In this document: piece after piece, positions 5,899 through 25,416 of the stretch
Numbering within the stretch: the first letter of the stretch is position 1
How the letters are laid out: the number at the start of each line of letters is the position of its first letter
Assembly (NCBI GenBank): GCA_038503075.1
Contig: JBCAML010000016.1
Span: 1,054,001-1,118,000 of the forward strand
Length of the DNA: 64,000 bases
Direction: 5' to 3'
Source: Gyromitra esculenta
Lineage: Eukaryota; Ascomycota; Pezizomycetes; Pezizales; Discinaceae
The notes under the pieces: model-generated
Database searches by the model: none
Told to the model about the DNA's origin: nothing
What the model saw: only the letters and a program-made list of their open reading frames with translations
Made by a program: the position numbers and the translations under genes

Positions 5899-6317
5899 TT
5901 TCATGGATGGTTGTCGCGTTGGAGTACGGATGTTTCATTGTTTTATTCGGGCGCATGGGTGCGTGGCTGTGCGGTTATCTTTTCTTTTCTTTTGGTTTCC
6001 TTTTACAATGAGTCAGACATGTGTCATCGAAAGGTCGGATTTTGGGTATATAAGCAAGAGGAAGACCCTCCTGTTGTACTTTTCCTTCTTCTCTCTTTAA
6101 GCAACGTCTTCTATTGTCCACTCTTGTATTTTACAATATAAACCTCGATTACATCTCGTAATCCTTCGTCGTCGCTGTCTTTAAGTCATCTGGACTTAAA
6201 CCAATTGTAGAGCCTGTAGAATCTTCGTACGCTTTCCTGTTGCTGGTTTCCCGTTCAAGTAGCACTGCTCATCTCGAGGGATACTCGAGAGCTTGACAAG
6301 AAACCAGCCCCTTGAGA
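5899..6317 (+). repeat. 5' LTR of Gypsy2 (LTR2 family)
   Basis: This 419-bp LTR starts TTTCATGG and ends CCTTGAGA. A TATA box (TATATAAG, 6,047) precedes the block TTTAAGCAACGTC (6,096-6,108), which probably marks the start of the element RNA. It matches the 3' LTR at 12,181 with scattered differences, so the insertion is not recent. Confidence 0.93.
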
Positions 6318-6330
6318 TTACGTTGCTTCC
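6318..6330 (+). other. Predicted self-primer binding site of Gypsy2
   Basis: Directly after the LTR there is no tRNA-primer site of the usual TGG type. Instead ACGTTGCTT (6,320-6,328) is the exact reverse complement of AAGCAACGT at 6,099-6,107 within the LTR. This layout is known from the self-priming Tf1/sushi group. The same pair exists in Gypsy3. Confidence 0.6.
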
Positions 6331-6374: not shown

Positions 6375-7619
6375 ATGAGCAACCCCGCCCCTGCACCCTG
6401 GACTTTCCCTACTTTTGAGAACTTCCAAGCCGCCGCCAACGCCGACCTCGCCTCCGCCTATGAGGAAATCCGCTCACACTATCAACAACGGGTAGATAAC
6501 CTTACCTACGCAGACCTGCAGCTTGAGGAAGCCACTCAAGAGCGGAACAACATGACGGCAAGGTTTAACACCTGCCAGTCCCAACTACAGGCAGCCGAAG
6601 CAGAGGTCGCTCGCCTTCGCAACGCCGCCCCCCCACCGCCTGCACCACCACCTCCCGCGCCTCCGGCACATACCCAAGGAGGCTGATCAGACAAAATGCC
6701 TGACCCAGATAAATTCAACGGGTCTCGCGACAAACTTCCCGGGTTCGTTCTACAACTCAGGTCAAAACTCTCGGTTAACGCCGACCGATTCTCCAACAGC
6801 AACAATATGATATTGTATGCTATTAGCCGTCTTGAGGGAGCAGCCCTTGAACAAATTCGCCACTCCGTCCTTCCTGACGGAACTACCACCTGGAATTCCG
6901 CCGCCGACCTGATCACCGCTCTGGAAACGGCCTTTGGCGACCCCGACCCCCTCGGTACCGCCCGCCGTGAACTACATCAACTCCGACAAGGAAAGAGGGA
7001 TTTTTCCGCTTATCTTGCCGACTTTCAACGCATCATGGGGCGCCTTAACTATGATGAGTCCGCTAAGAACGACGCTCTGGAGTTTGGCATGTCGGACGAG
7101 CTAAAAGAAGCAGTAGTAACTGTTGCTGATTTTCCCACCACCTTCACTTCCCTCTGCGCCTTCCTCCTTCGCCTAGATAACCGTATCCGAGCAAGAAGAG
7201 AGGAAAAGAAGAACGCTGCCCACAACACCATGGGACAATTCACCGCCCCTGCCGCCGCCCCTGCCGCTTTTACCCCTACCTCCTCCTTTGCCCCTGGAGG
7301 ACTTGCCCCCATGGATCTCTCCTTCGGCCGCACTACTACCTCTCGTCCTGCCCCTGAACAACGCTACGTCCAGGTTAACGGAAGAAGAAAGCTGTCAGCC
7401 GAAGAAAAAACATGGAGACAGACCAACAACCGATGCCTGTTCTGTGCCGGAGAAGGGCACATTTTTTCCAACTGCCCCTCCGCCTCAAAACGCCCCGCCA
7501 TGAGAGGAGCTGTTATCAACGCCGCTGCCGCCCCTCCCGCCCCTTCTGTTTTTCCGCCCCGATTGCCACCCCGTTTTCCTGCCTTCAATGCAGCAGACTC
7601 AGTTGAGTCTTTAAACTAG
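6375..7619 (+). pseudogene. gag of Gypsy2 (capsid and CCHC nucleocapsid), one nonsense codon
   Basis: About 414 codons starting at MSNPAPAPW. An N-terminal helical segment (about residues 15-75) is followed by a proline run, a retrotransposon gag/capsid domain (GSRDKLPGFVLQLRSKL to FLLRLDNRI, about 110-270) and a zinc knuckle (CLFCAGEGHIFSNC, about 360-373). TGA at 6,684-6,686 interrupts it where the sister copy has an arginine codon; the frame is otherwise open. The natural stop is TAG at 7,617-7,619, and pol follows in the -1 frame. Gag would build the particle and bind the RNA. Confidence 0.9.
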
Positions 7620-7654
7620 TTCAACCAGAGTCGCCTTGTGACCCTGCTCTGGTT
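7610..7654 (+). promoter_or_regulatory. Programmed -1 ribosomal frameshift signal, gag-pol of Gypsy2
   Basis: T TTA AAC (7,610-7,616) is a classical X-XXY-YYZ slippery heptamer in the gag frame and is followed at once by the gag stop TAG. Six bases downstream, AACCAGAG (7,623-7,630) pairs perfectly with CTCTGGTT (7,647-7,654) around a 16-nt loop. The pol frame is open through the heptamer and lies exactly one base back. Gypsy3 keeps all of this with a compensatory A-U to G-C change. Confidence 0.85.
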
Positions 7655-10600
7655 CCCTTTTCTCCTTTGTCAGCGTTCTCTATCTCTGGGTTTTCAGTGT
7701 CGGATGTGTGTGTGGAGGATAACTTGGATGGGGAACATTTTGTAGTTTCATGTAGCCTTTCCCACCAAAATAAAATTATAAAAACACACGCACTTCTTGA
7801 CACTGGAGCCTCAGGGTTCGCTTTCATTGACGAAAACTTTGTGCGTCACCATTCCCTGCCCCTATCTCCCCTCAAAACCCCCCGCCAATTAGAAGTCATT
7901 GATGGCCGAACAATTGCCTCGGGAGATATCACCAATCTCTGCCACCTAGAACTCTCTATTCAACAACACATTGAGAGAGTCCCTTTCTTCGTCACCAAAC
8001 TAGGCCATTACCCCCTAGTACTCGGTATTCCCTGGATGAACCTCCATGACGTTCACCTACAATTTGCAAACAAAAGCATTGAATTCAACTCTGAGTTCTG
8101 CACCACCCACTGTGCCCCCAAGCAACCCATCGTTTCGGTCGACGCAATCCCATCACCAGCCAAACTCAACGCAGCCTTTATCGGCGCTGCCAGTTTCCGC
8201 TTACTCGCTAGAAAAAAGGGTATCCAGGTCTATTCTATGTCCCTCTATGAAATCAATAGAGTTCTTGATAGCAAGACTACTAAAGAAGAATGGAGACAAC
8301 GAATACCTGCCGAATACCACGAGTACCTGGATATGTTTGATAAAGCAAAAGCACAAGGACTCCCCCCCCGCCGCCCCTATGACCACCGCATCACCCTCCA
8401 AGAAGGCAAGGAACCCCCATTCGGCCCACTCTACGGCATGTCACGAGATGAACTTCTAGTTCTTAAGAAGTACATCGAAGACAACTTAGAAAAAGGGTTT
8501 ATCCGTGCCAGTTCATCTTCTGCCGGTTCCCCAGTCCTCTTCGCCGCCAAACCCGATGGTTCCCTCCGCCTTTGTGTCGATTATCGTGGCCTCAACGCTC
8601 TCACGGTTAAGGACCGATATACTTCCCCCCTAATTAAAGAAACCTTGGATCGCCTTGCAAAAGCTCAGTGGTACTCCAAACTCGACCTCCGCGACGGTTT
8701 TCACCAAATTCGTATCGCCGAGGGAGAAGAATGGAAAACAGCCTTTCGGCCTTACTAATGCCCCCGGTACATTCCAACGATTCGTGAACGATTCACTCCG
8801 AGAATACCTAGATCTTTTCTGCACGGCCTACCTCGATGACATCCTCATCTACAGCGATACCCTTATTGAACACAAGGTACATGTCAGACAGGTCCTCGAC
8901 GCCCTCAAAGCCAACAACATTCTTCTCAAACCTGAGAAGTGTGAATTCCATGTGCAGTCCATTAAATACCTCGGTCTAATCCTTACCCCCGAAGGCATCA
9001 AGATGGACGATGATAAATTAAAAGCCGTCCGGGATTGGAACCGCCCAAAATCAATTAAAGACGTACAAGCCTTTCTTGGTTTCGCGAATTTCTACCGTAG
9101 ATTTATCTTGGGATTTTCTCACCTCGCCGCCCCCCTCACCGCCTTCACGAAAAAAGGCACCGTCTTTGAATGGACCGTCGAAGCCGAGCTTGCTTTCGAA
9201 GCTCTCAAAGATGCCTTTACTAAGGCCCCCGTACCCATCCACTTCGATCCCAGAAAAAAGATCTTCGTTGAATCTGACGCTTCCGACTTCGTCTCCGGTG
9301 GTGTCCTCTCTCAGCTCGACGACCAAGGCATACTGCACCCCGTGGCATTCTTCTCTAAGAAACATTCACCTGCCGAATGTAACTATGAGATATACGACAA
9401 AGAATTGCTAGCCATCATCCGCTGCTTCGAGGAATGGAGACCCGAACTTGAAGGATCCGAATTACCCATATCTGTCATTACCGACCATAAAAACTTAGAG
9501 TACTTTATGACTACTAAGCAACTCAACCGGAGACAAGTTAGATGGGCGGAATACCTCTCACGTTGTAAGACCGGTACTTCTTACCGCACAGGGAATCTCC
9601 AAGAAGCTTTAGATAACAATCTAGACGCTATAACCTGCCCGGTTGCTGTCCGCAACACAATACACAGGCGCAAGTCCTAACTGCTTCTTATGAACCGCTA
9701 AAAGATAACCGTAGGGTTCAAAGTAGGGATCGAGCAAGTTCCGTGAAGAACTTCCAATAGTAAGGTTTTAATAACTAACGCTGAAGGGTCCTGGCCCTAT
9801 ATATAGTTTGAATATCGCTTGCTTTGCTTGTTGGGTATTGTGTTCGTTCGAATATACTCTTCGTCTAACCTATCTGGAAGGATGAGGTCTGTTGTGGACA
9901 CGTCGTGACTTTGAGGTTCGTGTTGCGTAAAGCAACAACAAAGTCTCTTGAAGAAATAAAAGATTCTTTGCATGAAGAAAGTATTACTTGAAGATGAAAT
10001 GAACGCAGGACCTTGAGAGTATGAATGAAAGTTGTATACTGCTAAGCTATACAATATAATATTGATAAGGCTCGTTCTTCGTCGCTAATGATCAGGAAGA
10101 AGACCCTTCTCAACGGTAGAACACTGGACTACTTATAGTAGTCAAGCGTCGAATACAAAGGCTATGTAATAACATGAACTAACATGAAGTAATCCCATAA
10201 ACCCTGAACGCTTTCCTTTGCTCCTACCCCTCTCATTATCGTATGGCGTGATTGTCGGAATTAACCGGCGACACAACGTATAAGCGAATAGGGGAAGTGT
10301 CGATCGAAAGAGTCGGCCATTGATGACTCAAGGAAACCAAACATCCAATCCGGATCTTATTAATAATCAACCAAGATTAATAATAACCGACATGGTCGGG
10401 GATTGAACGCTAGTCCATATGCGCATCGTAAGCGAACTCAAGTCGTAACCAACTAAGCTACCAATAGGTATAACACATGTTTTGACTTTGTCATTACATA
10501 CCGACCGGGAGTACAAGGAGGAAAGCCGGACACTCGACTCGGAGATCGGAGATCTCACTGAAGAAGGGGATGAAAGACTACAACACCAACACCAAGTAGT

Positions 10601-12180: not shown

Positions 12181-12600
12181 TTTCATGGATGGTTGCCGCG
12201 TTGGAGTACGGATGTTTCATTGTTCTATTCGGGTATATGGTTGCGTGGTTGTGCGGTTATCTCTTTTCTTCTTTTGGTTTCCATTTACAATGAGTCAGAC
12301 ATGTGTCATCGAAAGGTCGGATTTTGGGTATATAAGCGAGAGGAAAGCCCTCCTGTTGTATTTTTCCTTCTTCTTTCTTTAAGCAATGTCTTCTATTGTC
12401 CACTCTTGTATTCTACAAATACAAACCTCGATTACATCTCGTAATCCTTCGTCGTCGCTGTCTTTAAGTCATCTGGACTTAAACCAATTGTAGAGCCTGT
12501 AGAATCTTCGTACGCTTTCCTGTTGCTGGTTTCCCGTTCAAGTAGCACTGCTCATCTCGAGGGATACTCGAGAGCTTGACAAGAAACCAGCCCCTTGAGA
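12181..12600 (+). repeat. 3' LTR of Gypsy2
   Basis: This 420-bp LTR starts TTTCATGG right after GGGAGGGGTAC and ends CCTTGAGA. The TCGAG duplication and the resumed copia linker follow. Confidence 0.93.
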
Positions 12601-12709
12601 TCGAGTCTCTTGGGGGAGTTTTTGGTGCTTCTGATTCTTCTCCGGACTCTTCTGCTCCTTCTTCCTCCTTATTCTTTCCTGATGCAGGTTTTGGTGCTAG
12701 GTTGTTATT

Positions 12710-19614: not shown

Positions 19615-20025
19615 TCTCAAGGGGCGAGGTTTTGTCTTCAAGCTCTCAGGTATCCCCCGAGATGAGCAGTGCTACTTGAAGGTAAAACTAAGCGACAAGA
19701 GTGTTTACGGGATTCCACAGGCTCTACGAAGTGATCAAGTATAGAGGACTTGAGATTTGGAGAAAGCGTGAGGTTATGAGGTATAACCGAGGTTTGTATT
19801 GTAAAATACAAGAGTGTACTACAGAAGACGTTGCTTAAGGAAAGAGAAAGAAAAGTACAACAAGAGGGGAAATCCCTTCGCTTATATACTCATAATCCAC
19901 CTCTTCGATGACAAACGTATGACTCATTGTAAAGGAAACCACGGGAAACATATCGAACAACCGACAGAACAACACAACAAGATACCTATACCGCTAACCG
20001 AACAACACGACAACCATCCATGAAA
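19615..20025 (-). repeat. 3' LTR of Gypsy3
   Basis: 411 bp; on the minus strand it starts TTTCATGG after the polypurine tract and ends CCCCTTGAGA. No difference from the 5' LTR was seen. Confidence 0.93.
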
Positions 20026-20037
20026 GTACCCCCTCCC

Positions 20038-23000
20038 TTATAGCTGTGAGCTCCTGCGAACACTAACCAGACCTTTCTTCGGCTTACTCGGATACCTTTG
20101 GTGAAACACGTCCACTGCTCCCGTTTCTTCATGGTACTCCGCAGGTTCCCACGTAGGCAAAGCATATCCCGTCCACTCAACCAAGTATTGAAGTCTTCCC
20201 CGGTGGAGGCGAGAGTCTAATATTTTTTCAATAAGATACTCCTCATGGTCGTTAACCTGGATAGGGGGGGGTGGTGGGATGATTTGGCCAGGGAGTGGGT
20301 CGGTAGGAGCTGCTTTCATTAATGAAACGTGGAATACCGGATGGTACTTCATTGACGTTGGCAGGTCTATTTCATAAGCGTGCGCCGAGATTATCCTCTT
20401 TATAGGGAAGGGGCCACTCCATTTCCAGTCTAACTTCCTCGAATTCCTGGTTGTCATGTATTCGTAAACCGAAGACTCTTTGAACGAAGGAGCAGGGGTA
20501 CGGTGACGATTAGTACTGGTTTCGTGAATATCTTGAGCCGTTCTCATCTGTATTCGGAGGAAGTCTCTAAGTTCTTCCATCTTTAAAGCAAAGAGATTGG
20601 CATCAAGGGTTTGCGGGGAACGGTCGTTGGAGGTAATAGACGTGTCAAAGCGAGGGTGATAGCCGTAATTGGCGAAGAAAGGGGTGGCCTTAGTACTGGC
20701 CGATTCCTGGTTATTGGCAGCAAACTCAGCAATTGGTAACCATTTGACCCAATCATCTTGTTGGTACGAGACATAGCAACGAAGATATTGCTCCATGACA
20801 GCATTGAGGCGCTCAGTTTGACCATCCGTCTCCGGGTGAAAAGACGTTGACATACGAGCGGAAATATTGAGGCGTTGACAGAGGTGTTTCCAAAACTTAG
20901 CGGTGAATTGCGTTCCTCTATCGGAGGTGATAAAGGAAGGTAGTCCATGGAGTTTCCAAACGTTTTGGAGGTAGAGTTCCGCAGTTTGTTCAGCATTGAC
21001 GGTGGTATTACAGGGTATCAAGTGTCGCATTTTTGATAGCCTATCTACTACAACCATTATTGCATCGAACCCATCGGATTCGGGGAGGCCAGTGACAAAA
21101 TCCATTGATAGTTCTTCCCAGGGGCGGTTAGGAATTGGGAGTGGTTTAAGGACGCCGTGGGTACCAAGGGTGTTGGGCTTTGCTCGTCGACAGGTATGGC
21201 AATTTCGGGTATATCGTCCAATATATTCCCTCATTTTCGGCCAATAAAAATACCTAGAGATGAGTTCAAAGGATTTTTCACGTCCTGGATGGCCGGCCGA
21301 GGGGGCATCGTGATATCTTTGTAGGATAAGAATACGGAGAGGGTGGTGATCGGGGACATAGAACTTTTGTCGATATAAAAGGTAGCCATTTTTCTCAGTG
21401 CAATCGCCTAGGGTGATTTCCTTGGATTGTTGTTCGCCATTCTTAAGTGCTAATAGAATTTTTTGTGGGAATGGGTCAGCAATATATCCGTGGTTCATCA
21501 AGGTCTCGAGGGGGGCATCCAATTCAGCGGGTTCGTTTGATAAAGAACCCGAAAACAAACTCAGCTTAGGGTCAAGATTCTTTTCCTTCAAGACTACCTG
21601 ATTTTGGTGTTGTAGCCTTTCATCCCCTTCTTCAGGGAGATCTCCTGATCTCCGAGTCAATGCATCCGGCTTTCCCCCTTGTACTCCTGGTCGATAAGTA
21701 ATCACGAAGTCAAAGCGTGAGAGGTACTCTGCCCATCTGACTTGTCTCCTATTGAGTTGTTTCGTCGTCATGAAGTATTCTAGGTTCTTATGATCGGTGA
21801 TGACGGAGATAGGCAGTTCAGAGCCTTCAAGTTCCGGTCTCCATTCTTCAAAACAGCGAATGATGGCTAGGAGTTCTTTATCGTAGATTTCATAATTACA
21901 TTCGGCTGGCGAGTGTTTTTTGGAAAAGAAAGCCACGGGGTGGAGTACGTTGTTATCGTCGAGCTGAGAAAGAACACCGCCGGAGACGAAGTCAGAAGCA
22001 TCGGATTCGACAAAGATTTTCTTCCGAGGATCGAAGTGGACGAGTACTGGTGCTTTGGTAAAGGCATCTTTGAGTGCTTCGAATGCTAATTCAGCTTCAA
22101 CTGTCCATTCAAAGATAGTGCCTTTTTTAGTAAACGCAGTAAGGGGGGCAGCAAGGCGTGAGAATCCTAAAATAAATCTCCGGTAGAAGTTTGCGAAACC
22201 TAAGAATGCTTGGACATCCTTAACACATTTGGGTCGGTTCCAATCTCGTACGGCCTTGAGCTTGTCCTCGTCCATTTTAATACCTTCAGGAGTAAGGATC
22301 AAACCGAGGTATTTGATTGATTGTACATGGAACTCGCATTTCTCCGGTTTAAGGAGGATGTTGTTAGCTTTGAGGGCGTCTAGAACCTGTCTGACATGCG
22401 CTTTGTGTTCGGTAAGAGTGTCACTATAGATGAGGATATCATCGAGGTATGCTGTGCAGAAGAGGTCTAAATATTCTCGGAGAGAATCATTGACGAAACG
22501 CTGGAAGGTACCAGGGGCATTGGTAAGGCCAAATGGCATCACCATATACTCATACAGGCCATATCGTGTCCGGAAAGCTGTTTTCCACTCTTCTCCTTCG
22601 GCGATACGAATTTGGTGAAAGCCGTCACGGAGGTCAAGCTTTGAGTACCATTGAGCCTTTGCAAGACGGTCTAGGGTTTCTTTGACCAAGGGGGATGTAT
22701 ATCGGTCCTTGACTGTGAGAGCATTAAGACCACGGTAATCGACACAAAGACGGAGAGACCCATCGGGTTTGGCGGCGAAGAGGACTGGAGAACCGGCGGA
22801 GGATGAACTGGCGCGAATAAAGCCTTTCTCCAAATTATCCTCGATGTACTTCTTAAGGACTAAGAGTTCATCTCGTGACATGCCGTAGAGCGGGCCGAAT
22901 GGGGGTTCTTTGCCTTCCTGAAGTATGATGCGATGGTCGTAAGGGCGGCGGGGGGGGAGTCCTTGGGCTTTTGCTTTATCGAACATGTCCAGGTATTCGT

Positions 23001-23697
23001 GATATTCAGCGGGTATTCTCTGTCTCCATTCCTCTTTTGTGGTTTTACTATCGAGGACCTTGTTTATTTCATAGAGAGACATCGAATAGACCTGATTTTC
23101 TACAGCGACGTACGGAAGCGGCGCCAATAAAGGCAGCGTTGAGTTTAGCTGGAGGTGGAATGGCCGTAGCAGAAACGATGGGTTGTTTGGGGGCACAGTG
23201 GGTGGTGCAGAATTCAGAATTGAATTCAATGCTTTTGTTAGCGAATTTTAGATGGATATCGTGGAGATTCATCCATGGAATGCCGAGCACTAGGGGATAA
23301 TGTCCTAGCTTGGTAACGAAAAAAGGGGCTTTCTCGGTGTGTTGTTGAATTGAAAGCTCTAAGTGGCAAAGGTTGGTGATATCTCCCGAGGCAATTGTTC
23401 TGCCGTCAATAACTTCCAATTGGCGAGGGGTTTTAAGGGGAGATAATGGTAGGGAATGGTGACGCACAAAGTTTTCATCAATGAAAGCGAACCCTGAGGC
23501 TCCAGTGTCAAGAAGTGCGTGTGTTTTTATGACTTTATTTTGGTGGGAAAGGCTACATGAAACTACAAAATGTTCCCCATCCAAATTATCCTCCACACAC
23601 ACATCCGACACTGAAAACCCAGAAATAGAGAACGCTGACAAAGGAGAAAAAGGAACCGGAGCAGGGTCACAGGGCGACTCCGGTTGAACTAGTTTAA
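20038..23697 (-). pseudogene. pol of Gypsy3: protease, RT, RNase H, integrase, chromodomain (one frameshift)
   Basis: Pol is entered by -1 frameshift at 23,698-23,692. The protease (LLDTGASGFAF) occupies about 23,500-23,530 and the frame is lost near 23,100, where the sequence differs from Gypsy2 by several small changes. A second frame then runs to 20,038 with RT (YLDD near 22,450), RNase H (ESDASDF), zinc finger (CHTCRRAK), DDE integrase (TSDRGTQF, ETDGQTERLN) and chromodomain (YLVEWTGYALPTWEP). Just before the GPY-like region, FKESSVYEYMTTRNSRK replaces a longer stretch in Gypsy2, so there may also be a small deletion. An otherwise intact source copy may exist elsewhere in the genome. Confidence 0.9.
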
Positions 23698-23698
23698 A
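23654..23698 (-). promoter_or_regulatory. Programmed -1 frameshift signal, gag-pol of Gypsy3
   Basis: Minus strand: heptamer TTTAAAC (23,698-23,692), gag stop TAG (23,691-23,689), then AACCGGAG (23,685-23,678) pairing with CTCCGGTT (23,661-23,654). Compared with Gypsy2, an A-U pair in the stem is a G-C pair here. Confidence 0.85.
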
Positions 23699-24936
23699 GA
23701 CTCAATTGAGTCTGCTGCATCAAAGGCAGGAAAGCGAGGTGGAAGAGGCGGCGGAAAAACAGAGGGAGCTGGAGGTGCGGCGGCGGCATTGGTGACTGCT
23801 CCTCTCATGGCGGGACGTTTGGAGGCGGAGGGGCAATTTGAGAAGATATGTCCTTCCCCGGCGCAGAACAGGCAACGGTTGTTGGTTTGTCTCCAAGATT
23901 TTTCTTCAGGAGACAGTTTTCTTCTTCCGTTCACCTGAACATACCGTTGTTCGGGGGCGGGGCGAGAAGTGGAAGTGCGACCGAAGGAAAGATCCATAGG
24001 GGCAAGTCCTCCAGGGGCGAAGGAGGAAGAGGCGGGGGCGAAGGCAGCGGGGGCAGCGGCAGGGGCAGTGAATTGTCCCATAGTGTTTCGGGCAGCGTTT
24101 TTCTTCTCCTCTCTTCTTGCTCGGATACGGTTATCTAAGCGGAGGAGGAAGGCACAGAGGGAAGTGAAGGTGGTTGGGAAGTCGGCGACGGTTACTACTG
24201 CTTCTTTCAGCTCGTCCGACATGCCGTACTCCAGAGCGTCGTTTTTTGCGGATTCGTCGTAATTGAGCCGTCCCATGATGCGTTGGAAATCGGCAAGATA
24301 AGCGGAAAAATCCCTCTTTCCTTGCCGAAGTTGGTGTAGTTCGCGGCGGGCGGTACCGAGGGGGTCGGGGTCGCCGAAAGCGGTTTCCAAGGCAGTAATC
24401 AGATCGGCGGCGGAGTTCCATGTAGTAGTCCCGTCAGGGAGGACTGAGTGGCGAATCTGTTCGAGGGCGGCTCCCTCGAGGCGGCTGATAGCATACAATA
24501 TCATGTTATTGTTGCTGGAGAATCGGTCGGCGTTAACCGAGAGTTTGGAACGCAATTGTAGGACGAAACCAGGGAGCTTATCGCGAGACCCATTAAATTT
24601 ATCTGGGTCGGGCATCTTGTCCGAGCGGCCTCCTTGATTGGGGGCTGGTGGTGGTGGAGGAGAAGGCGCAGGAGGTGGGGGGGCGACATTGCGGAGGCGG
24701 ACGATTTCTGCCTCTGCGGCTTGCAGTTGGGACTGGCAAGTGTTGAATCTTGCCGTCATGTTGTTTCTTTCTTGTACAGCTTCTTCTAGCTGTAGGTCCG
24801 CATACGTGAGGTTATCGACCCGTTGTTGGTAATGGGAACGAATCTCCTCGTAGGCGGAGGCGAGGTCGGCGTTGGCGGCGGCCTGGAAGTTCTCAAAGGT
24901 TGGGAAAGTCCAGGGGGCGGGGGCGGGGTTGCTCAT
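23689..24936 (-). CDS. gag of Gypsy3, intact
   Basis: 415 residues starting MSNPAPAPW; an upstream in-frame ATG lies inside the LTR and is less likely. An N-terminal helical part (about 15-90) is followed by a proline-rich hinge, then the retrotransposon gag/capsid domain (about 115-275), an alanine/proline linker and one CCHC knuckle (CLFCAGEGHIFSNC, about 360-373). The gene would supply particle protein and RNA packaging. The last sense codons form the slippery site for pol. Unlike Gypsy2 gag it has no internal stop. Confidence 0.9.
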   Translation of the reverse strand: MSNPAPAPWTFPTFENFQAAANADLASAYEEIRSHYQQRVDNLTYADLQLEEAVQERNNMTARFNTCQSQLQAAEAEIVRLRNVAPPPPAPSPPPPPAPNQGGRSDKMPDPDKFNGSRDKLPGFVLQLRSKLSVNADRFSSNNNMILYAISRLEGAALEQIRHSVLPDGTTTWNSAADLITALETAFGDPDPLGTARRELHQLRQGKRDFSAYLADFQRIMGRLNYDESAKNDALEYGMSDELKEAVVTVADFPTTFTSLCAFLLRLDNRIRARREEKKNAARNTMGQFTAPAAAPAAFAPASSSFAPGGLAPMDLSFGRTSTSRPAPEQRYVQVNGRRKLSPEEKSWRQTNNRCLFCAGEGHIFSNCPSASKRPAMRGAVTNAAAAPPAPSVFPPPLPPRFPAFDAADSIESLN

Positions 24937-25005
24937 GGCGGCGTTGAAGGTTTTGTGGCCGCGTAGAAAAGCGGGGTAGAGGGTGTGGATAAGGAAGCAA
25001 CGTAA

Positions 25006-25416
25006 TCTCAAGGGGCGAGGTTTTGTCTTCAAGCTCTCAGGTATCCCCCGAGATGAGCAGTGCTACTTGAAGGTAAAACTAAGCGACAAGAGTGTTTACG
25101 GGATTCCACAGGCTCTACGAAGTGATCAAGTATAGAGGACTTGAGATTTGGAGAAAGCGTGAGGTTATGAGGTATAACCGAGGTTTGTATTGTAAAATAC
25201 AAGAGTGTACTACAGAAGACGTTGCTTAAGGAAAGAGAAAGAAAAGTACAACAAGAGGGGAAATCCCTTCGCTTATATACTCATAATCCACCTCTTCGAT
25301 GACAAACGTATGACTCATTGTAAAGGAAACCACGGGAAACATATCGAACAACCGACAGAACAACACAACAAGATACCTATACCGCTAACCGAACAACACG
25401 ACAACCATCCATGAAA
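25006..25416 (-). repeat. 5' LTR of Gypsy3
   Basis: 411 bp. On the minus strand it runs TTTCATGG ... CCCCTTGAGA and is followed directly by TTACGTTGCTTCC, the self-primer site. Confidence 0.93.

What the first reader, a model, noticed from the sequence alone, without database searches (positions are those of the whole stretch)
7610..7654. Gag-pol -1 frameshift signal with slippery TTTAAAC, abutting stop, and a covarying stem-loop
In both chromoviruses gag ends TTA-AAC-TAG and pol lies in the -1 frame. T-TTA-AAC is an ideal -1 slippery heptamer. Six bases later an 8-bp perfect stem (AACCAGAG/CTCTGGTT, 16-nt loop) follows. In Gypsy3 (23,654-23,698) the stem is AACCGGAG/CTCCGGTT: the fifth pair changed from A-U to G-C on both sides, two of only three differences I see in this stretch. 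That is direct evidence for selection on an RNA structure. Recoding is known in gypsy elements (Ty3 uses +1; several fungal elements -1), but this compact site with covariation is unusually clear.
Basis: partly seen in the sequence, partly recalled or inferred. Interest (0 to 1): 0.75.

Follow-up and report, generated by a model that had tools for sequence, protein, structure and literature searches.

The report
Retrotransposon gag-pol ribosomal frameshift signal
A retrotransposon family in this fungal-looking genome appears to make its enzymes by having ribosomes slip back one base at a fixed seven-base site followed by an RNA hairpin that has been kept paired through paired mutations; this is a well-supported new example of a known mechanism.

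Summary
T_TTA_AAC (7610-7616) ends gag directly before TAG. Pol lies in the -1 frame, and here the two frames overlap by only 13 nt. An 8-bp hairpin starts six bases after the heptamer; the second copy (23,654-23,698) differs by three bases, two of them a compensating pair. Across the host genome the signal holds. Of 80 sites fetched by similarity and not by heptamer, 78 have TTTAAAC and all 80 have TAG or TAA directly behind; 72 keep all seven core pairs and 8 keep six. On a tree built from flanks only, 9 of 10 two-sided changes in the helix keep pairing; slid partners give 0-1. Codons under both arms change amino acid in step. Homologous gags elsewhere also end in -LN (8 of 71). No widely shared splice signal or pseudoknot partner was found. 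Most likely this is -1 programmed frameshifting with a stem-loop stimulator in a chromovirus, built like known retroviral, PEG10 and Verticillium gypsy cases. It is a new member of a known kind. Frameshifting itself was not measured. The nearly invariant loop GUGACCC is unexplained. Neither window copy has an unbroken pol frame.

The parts
6696..7619 (+). 3' part of gag (copy 1), Retrotrans_gag + DUF4939; ends ...E-S-L-N-stop; gag frame open for 310 codons before the stop
7604..7606 (+). TGA in the pol (-1) frame that bounds the overlap upstream; not kept in all copies
   Evidence: sequence; pol frame open 1 to 94 codons upstream of the heptamer in 68 long loci
7610..7616 (+). slippery heptamer T_TTA_AAC (gag codons TTA AAC)
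7617..7619 (+). gag stop codon TAG (TAA in some copies), inside the spacer
   Evidence: 70 TAG + 10 TAA of 80 similarity-fetched sites
7617..7622 (+). 6-nt spacer between heptamer and stem
7623..7631 (+). 5' arm of the stem (8 bp plus ninth inner pair)
7638..7644 (+). nearly invariant loop motif GUGACCC (78 of 80 similarity-fetched sites)
   Evidence: no partner found
7646..7654 (+). 3' arm of the stem
7607..8758 (+). start of pol in the -1 frame (RVP_2 protease, start of reverse transcriptase); open 382 codons from the heptamer in this copy
5899..6318 (+). 5' LTR of copy 1
   Evidence: 95.2% to 12181-12601
12181..12601 (+). 3' LTR of copy 1
23692..23698 (-). slippery heptamer of copy 2 ('Gypsy3'); stop 23689-23691
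23678..23685 (-). 5' arm of the stem, copy 2 (AACCGGAG)
23654..23661 (-). 3' arm of the stem, copy 2 (CTCCGGTT)
23689..25032 (-). gag of copy 2
20038..23641 (-). pol of copy 2: protease, RT, RNase H, integrase, chromodomain; frame changes between ORFs 23069-23641 and 20038-23229
19615..20025 (-). LTR of copy 2, 100% identical to 25006-25416
25006..25416 (-). LTR of copy 2

Best explanation
This is the gag-pol programmed -1 ribosomal frameshift signal of a Ty3/gypsy chromovirus family. Most ribosomes read TTA AAC TAG and release Gag. A minority pause at the hairpin that starts 6 nt downstream, slip back one base on U_UUA_AAC, miss the gag stop and go on in the -1 frame, giving a Gag-Pol polyprotein (protease, RT, RNase H, integrase, chromodomain). 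Shown here: the frames, the heptamer, its retention, the covarying stem and the reduced synonymous change. Inferred: that slippage happens, its rate, and that the hairpin is the stimulator.
For: Pol is in the -1 frame and the overlap at 7607-7619 leaves only the heptamer region for a shift. With the heptamer left free: 98 of 100 listed (of 162) and 32 of 33 are TTTAAAC + TAR; 78 of 80 similarity-fetched sites are TTTAAAC and all 80 have TAG or TAA next. In those 80 the codon before TTA is TCT (42), GCT (37) or AAT (1), always ending in the T that the heptamer needs. 9 of 10 two-sided changes in the helix keep pairing, slid partners 0-1; covariation score 0.399 against shuffled 0.218, reached by 0 of 500 shuffles, on 30 picked sequences. 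Paired arm types carry different amino acids (QPE/ALV, QPR/ALV, SPK/ASV, QPE/AQV). Mean synonymous difference is 0.171 over pol codons 0-15 against 0.406 later, in 66 of 87 long copies. RNAalifold finds the same helix unprompted. U_UUA_AAC is among the shiftiest heptamers for mammalian ribosomes (PMC5009743, passages), and IBV frameshifting, which uses this heptamer with its pseudoknot, gives 10-15% in yeast (PMC3777964, passages).
Against: No frameshift product or ribosome profile was seen. The hairpin of a single copy is only z -2.2 to -2.6. 8 of 80 similarity-fetched sites have one of the seven core pairs broken, and 2 of 80 have a changed heptamer (TTTAAAT, TTTCAAC). Two shuffle measures did not separate (pairs with two-sided change 400/500, pair types 500/500). 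Low synonymous change is not unique to the site (8-codon windows at codons 35 and 48 are nearly as low). Single column pairs elsewhere also reach 3 compensatory events. In PMC3777964 the same heptamer with another pseudoknot did not reach the IBV level (passages), so the heptamer alone does not guarantee much shifting.
Confidence: 0.92

Rival explanations
1. Gag and pol are joined by splicing a small intron across the junction, and the heptamer is incidental.
For: No transcript data were available, and short introns are common in fungi (recalled). A GTRNGT donor-like motif near -190 occurs in 25 of 68 long loci.
Against: No GTRNGT, GTNNGT or CTRAY motif is shared by half of 157 sites between -60 and +150; YAG is shared by half at three offsets, one being the gag stop itself. 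In -400..+100 no donor-like motif reaches half of 68 loci. Splicing does not explain the exact heptamer or the covarying stem.
Confidence: 0.03
2. Pol is translated on its own by termination-reinitiation or internal initiation at a downstream AUG.
For: In 11 of 28 long loci with open gag and pol the first in-frame ATG is 99 nt after the heptamer start, before the protease DTG motif at 189-192.
Against: In the other 17 of 28 the first in-frame ATG is at 426 or 429, behind the protease active site. No AUG touches the gag stop. It does not explain heptamer conservation.
Confidence: 0.03
3. The -1 shift is real but the hairpin serves another purpose (RNA packaging, dimerisation, protein binding) or works only together with a pseudoknot or trans factor that reads the loop.
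For: The loop GUGACCC is kept in 78 of 80 similarity-fetched sites, and codons 8 and 9 within it show no synonymous change in 66 copies, which a plain stimulator hairpin does not need.
Against: The stem starts 6 nt after the heptamer, where stimulators sit (5-9 nt, PMC3777964 passages). RNAalifold over -60..+150 adds only a pairing outside the loop (54-59 with 103-108 after the heptamer start) whose columns hardly vary and so say nothing. No full-length loop partner at a constant place.
Confidence: 0.2
4. The paired changes are an artefact of shared ancestry, recombination or coding constraint, not of selection on RNA.
For: Copies are related and may recombine; compensatory counts use a parsimony tree; single column pairs elsewhere reach 3 events.
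Against: Nine events stack on four pairs of one helix with 96% of cells paired; of 177 other hairpins of this geometry the one with most events has 6 (of 33 two-sided, 37% of cells paired) and the best-paired one has 79%. Codons under the arms change amino acid in step. A-U to U-A needs two transversions.
Confidence: 0.02

Closest known systems
PEG10 / sushi-ichi lineage -1 frameshift (mammals, fish)
   Different: PEG10 uses GGGAAAC and a pseudoknot (PMC5009743, passages); here UUUAAAC and a stem-loop without a detected pseudoknot, in a mobile multicopy family.
Verticillium dahliae gypsy elements VdLTRE2/3/4
   Same: Fungal Ty3/gypsy elements with chromodomain and pol in -1 relative to gag (PMC3441728, section 7 read; passages).
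   Different: Section 7 and the passages I read name no slippery site or stimulator.
Coronavirus (IBV) U_UUA_AAC frameshift signal
   Same: Same heptamer and the same 6-nt spacer (PMC3777964, passages).
   Different: IBV uses a pseudoknot (same passages) and its stop lies further downstream (recalled); here a hairpin of up to 9 bp with the stop directly behind the heptamer.
Rous sarcoma virus gag-pro site
   Same: Stop codon directly behind the heptamer (recalled).
   Different: Other heptamer and a much larger structure (recalled).
PaYIP3 -1 frameshift of Pezizomycotina
   Same: -1 frameshifting with compensatory changes in a downstream structure in filamentous ascomycetes (PMC3777964, passages).
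   Different: Cellular gene, non-canonical U_UUU_UCC, 2-nt spacer.
Sirevirus gag-pol junction stem (plants)
   Same: A covarying stem at the gag-pol junction of LTR elements (PMC5009743, passages).
   Different: There pol is in +1 and the stem is 11 bp with a 4-nt loop.

Membership tests
-1 programmed ribosomal frameshift signal (X_XXY_YYZ type) | Slippery heptamer in the zero frame inside an ORF overlap | tested here: met
   T_TTA_AAC in gag frame, overlap 7607-7619
-1 programmed ribosomal frameshift signal (X_XXY_YYZ type) | Structure 5-9 nt downstream under selection | tested here: met
   6-nt spacer; covarying stem of up to 9 bp
-1 programmed ribosomal frameshift signal (X_XXY_YYZ type) | Downstream ORF in the -1 frame is a real, maintained gene | tested here: met
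   pol domains; 67 of 150 scored matches in a pol frame of at least 1200 codons, 65 of them without a stop in the matched part (counted)
-1 programmed ribosomal frameshift signal (X_XXY_YYZ type) | Measured transframe product | not testable with these tools
   needs reporter or mass spectrometry
Ty3/gypsy chromovirus | gag - protease - RT - RNase H - integrase - chromodomain order | tested here: met
   Pfam hits on copy 2 ORFs
Ty3/gypsy chromovirus | LTR pair flanking the coding region | tested here: met
   95.2% and 100% identical LTR pairs
PEG10 / sushi-ichi lineage | DUF4939 + Retrotrans_gag gag and -1 heptamer just before the gag stop | tested here: met
   sequence
PEG10 / sushi-ichi lineage | H-type pseudoknot stimulator | tested here: inconclusive
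   no partner for the full loop at a constant place
PEG10 / sushi-ichi lineage | Phylogenetic placement by RT/integrase | not tested
   no tree against reference elements was built

The most novel reading that the evidence does not exclude
The hairpin is not a passive roadblock: its nearly invariant GUGACCC loop is read by a host factor or by a distant RNA contact, so the Gag to Gag-Pol ratio is regulated, and related fungal gag lineages have replaced the whole recoding signal several times (gag ends -LN, -EN, -FQ, -SLA by group).
Probability: 0.2. Interest if true: 0.6.

Novelty: new member of a known kind. Interest (0 to 1): 0.36.

Why it matters
It gives a naturally replicated test set: hundreds of copies in one genome, several arm types kept paired, one heptamer, for measuring how stem sequence sets -1 frameshifting. 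The grouped C-termini of related gags suggest that gag-pol recoding signals have turned over repeatedly in fungal chromoviruses, which can be checked in sequenced genomes.

Tried and rejected
Pseudoknot or kissing partner for the loop: RNAalifold on 0..+150 and -60..+150 and complement scans over +-1400 nt in 67 copies. Full GTGACCC complements scatter (at most 2 of 67 in one 20-nt bin). Shorter matches recur (GTGAC near +220 in 63 of 67, +280 and +380 in 58; CCAGTG near +180 in 64 of 67). The CCAGTG partner falls at the protease DTG codons (189-192), and the loop carries CCAGTG only in some subfamilies; I take the other short ones to be conserved coding sequence as well, but did not test that. 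Not convincing, so set aside.

Splicing: no donor or branch motif shared by half the sites near the junction. Internal initiation: first in-frame ATG behind the protease motif in 17 of 28.

Relatives elsewhere at DNA level: a viral-contig scan gave nothing; the host genome has no held relatives and no metagenome scan was allowed, so other species could be judged only by gag C-termini. Rfam: no match up to E 1 in 7400-7900.

Dropped before counts: 12 of 169 stretches (168 loci plus the window's copy 2) gave no site; all 12 had been fetched from the TTTAAACTAG listing. The other 157 sites include places fetched twice; 152 distinct 210-mers went into. Two sites with indels in the stem (L110, L121) were left out of the list printed for alignment A2 but kept. 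A2 holds 30 sequences: two of the window and 28 picked by me for arm diversity from 107 distinct 67-mers, poor stems included; none of the 6 distinct 67-mers with a changed loop motif is in it. One search used 66 of 87 long copies (those without a stop in the first 240 pol codons). The similarity queries contained the site itself, so they favour intact sites a little.

Full report
WHAT IS THERE. In copy 1 (plus strand) gag ends GAG TCT TTA AAC TAG. The pol frame is -1 to gag: TGA at 7604-7606 closes it upstream, so it is open from 7607 and the two frames share 7607-7619 only. Any shift into pol therefore has to happen on the heptamer T_TTA_AAC (7610-7616) or right beside it. Six bases after the heptamer, with the gag stop inside that spacer, lies the stem AACCAGAG/CTCTGGTT (7623-7630 with 7647-7654). 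Copy 2 on the minus strand (23,654-23,698) differs at three bases, two of which are the fifth pair (A-U to G-C). Pfam gives DUF4939 and Retrotrans_gag for gag, and RVP_2, RT, RNase H, integrase and chromodomain for pol.

STATE OF THE TWO COPIES. Neither has an uninterrupted pol frame: from the heptamer it is open 382 codons in copy 1 and 209 in copy 2. LTRs are 95.2% identical in copy 1 and 100% over 411 bp in copy 2, so copy 2 looks like a recent insertion. In the genome, 67 of the 150 scored protein matches to the pol start lie in a frame of at least 1200 codons, 40 of them exactly 1229; 2 of the 67 show a stop inside the matched part (counted). Only the best 150 of 704 candidates were scored, so this sample leans to close relatives of copy 1.

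THE SITE IN THE GENOME. The host genome (47.1 Mb, 23 contigs, not named) has 588 TTTAAACTAG against 169 for the reversed pattern. To avoid selecting on the heptamer I used three routes. First, similarity searches with stretches around and including the site: of 80 sites so fetched, 78 have TTTAAAC (exceptions TTTAAAT and TTTCAAC), and all 80 have TAG (70) or TAA (10) directly behind. Second, a pattern with ten free positions over heptamer and stop found 162 places; of the 100 listed, 99 have TTTAAAC and 98 TTTAAAC plus TAR; the reversed control found none. Third, the same for another subfamily: 32 of 33. In the 80 similarity-fetched sites the codon before TTA is TCT (42), GCT (37) or AAT (1); among the 77 others, most of them fetched by TTTAAACTAG, GAT occurs too. 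The amino acid changes but the last base stays T, which only the heptamer asks for.

THE STEM. Core arm types, with flanking codons: AACCAGAG/CTCTGGTT, AACCAAGG/CCTTGGTT, CACCGAAG/CTTCGGTT, AACCTGAG/CTCAGGTT, and in the window AACCGGAG/CTCCGGTT. Of 157 sites, 144 keep all seven core pairs, 11 keep six and 2 keep two or three; of the 80 similarity-fetched sites 72 keep seven and 8 keep six. A tree of 152 distinct 210-mers was made from the flanks only (FastTree, midpoint root) and changes were placed by Fitch parsimony: 9 of the 10 changes that alter both sides of a pair keep the pair, on four pairs; one of those is the ninth inner pair, whose three events could also have passed through U-G. 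Sliding the 3' partner by 1 to 3 gives 0 or 1. Among 177 hairpins of the same geometry elsewhere in the alignment the one with most has 6 of 33, with 37% of cells paired against 96% here; the best-paired one has 79%. Single column pairs elsewhere also reach 3 events, so the weight lies in the stacking. On a hand-picked set of 30 (A2) the covariation score and two other measures beat all 500 shuffles; two measures did not. RNAalifold finds the helix without being told. The arms' codons change amino acid together: QPE with ALV, QPR with ALV, SPK with ASV, QPE with AQV. One subfamily (L007-like, 6 of the 157 sites) has an A-C mismatch in the core but pairs further inward.

CONSTRAINT ON CODING. 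In the 66 of 87 long copies without a stop in the first 240 pol codons, the mean share of synonymous differences is 0.171 over codons 0-15 and 0.406 later. Codons 8 and 9, in the loop (AGT or TGT, GAC), show none. Windows at codons 35 and 48 are nearly as low, so this is support, not proof. The loop motif GUGACCC is kept in 78 of 80 similarity-fetched sites and 151 of all 157; I found no partner for it.

RIVALS. No splice donor or branch motif is shared by half the sites near the junction; a donor-like motif near -190 occurs in 25 of 68 long loci. In 17 of 28 long loci with open gag and pol the first in-frame ATG lies behind the protease DTG motif; in 11 it lies before it. The third frame meets TAA inside the heptamer itself. 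Readthrough is excluded because the frames differ.

OTHER SPECIES. Three protein searches gave 71 gag-like proteins. Eight end in -LN, as TTA AAC before a stop would give: P0001 (67% identical to the window's gag), P0006 (48%), P0010 (36%), P0037, P0038, P0049, P0053 and the distant P0031; three read -ESLN and one -PLN. Others end in -FQ, -EN, -SLA/SLV or -GKD/GKV by group; some of the 71 are fragments. The named close relatives are from Morchella sextelata and Podosphaera aphanis, and all three of those proteins end in -FQ. Without DNA the heptamer of the -LN gags is inferred.

WHAT IS KNOWN. A review (PMC5009743, passages only) reports that 28 of 51 animal LTR elements surveyed have pol in -1, that fungal ones are less skewed, that U_UUA_AAC is among the shiftiest heptamers with mammalian ribosomes, and that sirevirus elements have a covarying stem at the gag-pol junction. 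Verticillium gypsy elements with chromodomain have pol in -1 (PMC3441728, section 7). PEG10 uses GGGAAAC just before its ORF1 stop (PMC10570562, passages). In PMC3777964 (passages) a conserved ascomycete gene uses -1 shifting, and IBV frameshifting reaches 10-15% in yeast. Nine searches listed no paper that, by its listing, describes this family's signal; the library is partial, and the 2003 survey of recoding in LTR elements is not held.

VERDICT. A very well supported -1 frameshift signal in a chromovirus family: new as a member, known as a kind. The open points are its rate, the role of the loop, and the turnover of recoding signals among related gags.

Noticed in passing
7638-7644 and the same loop in other copies: Loop motif GUGACCC is kept in 78 of 80 similarity-fetched sites, also at synonymous positions, with no pairing partner found.
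   Followed up: partly
P0001-P0071: C-termini of homologous gags fall into groups (-LN, -FQ, -EN, -SLA/SLV, -GKD/GKV), as if each group had its own gag-pol recoding signal.
   Followed up: partly
19615-25416 (minus): Copy 2 has identical LTRs over 411 bp but a frame change inside pol (ORFs 23069-23641 and 20038-23229): a recent insertion already or from the start defective, or an assembly error.
   Followed up: partly
about +105 to +165 nt after the heptamer (pol codons 35-42 and 48-55): Two more stretches of low synonymous change in pol, before and around the protease start.
   Followed up: no
G000:C4:187494-187943: One pol match lies in an open frame of 3557 codons, far longer than the usual 1229.
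   Followed up: no
G000 contigs, e.g. C1:254-276 kb, 523-557 kb, 1119-1148 kb, 2293-2320 kb: TTTAAACTAG sites cluster, which suggests retrotransposon islands.
   Followed up: no
about -190 relative to the heptamer, 25 of 68 long loci: A donor-like GTRNGT motif in the gag of some copies; not examined further.
   Followed up: no
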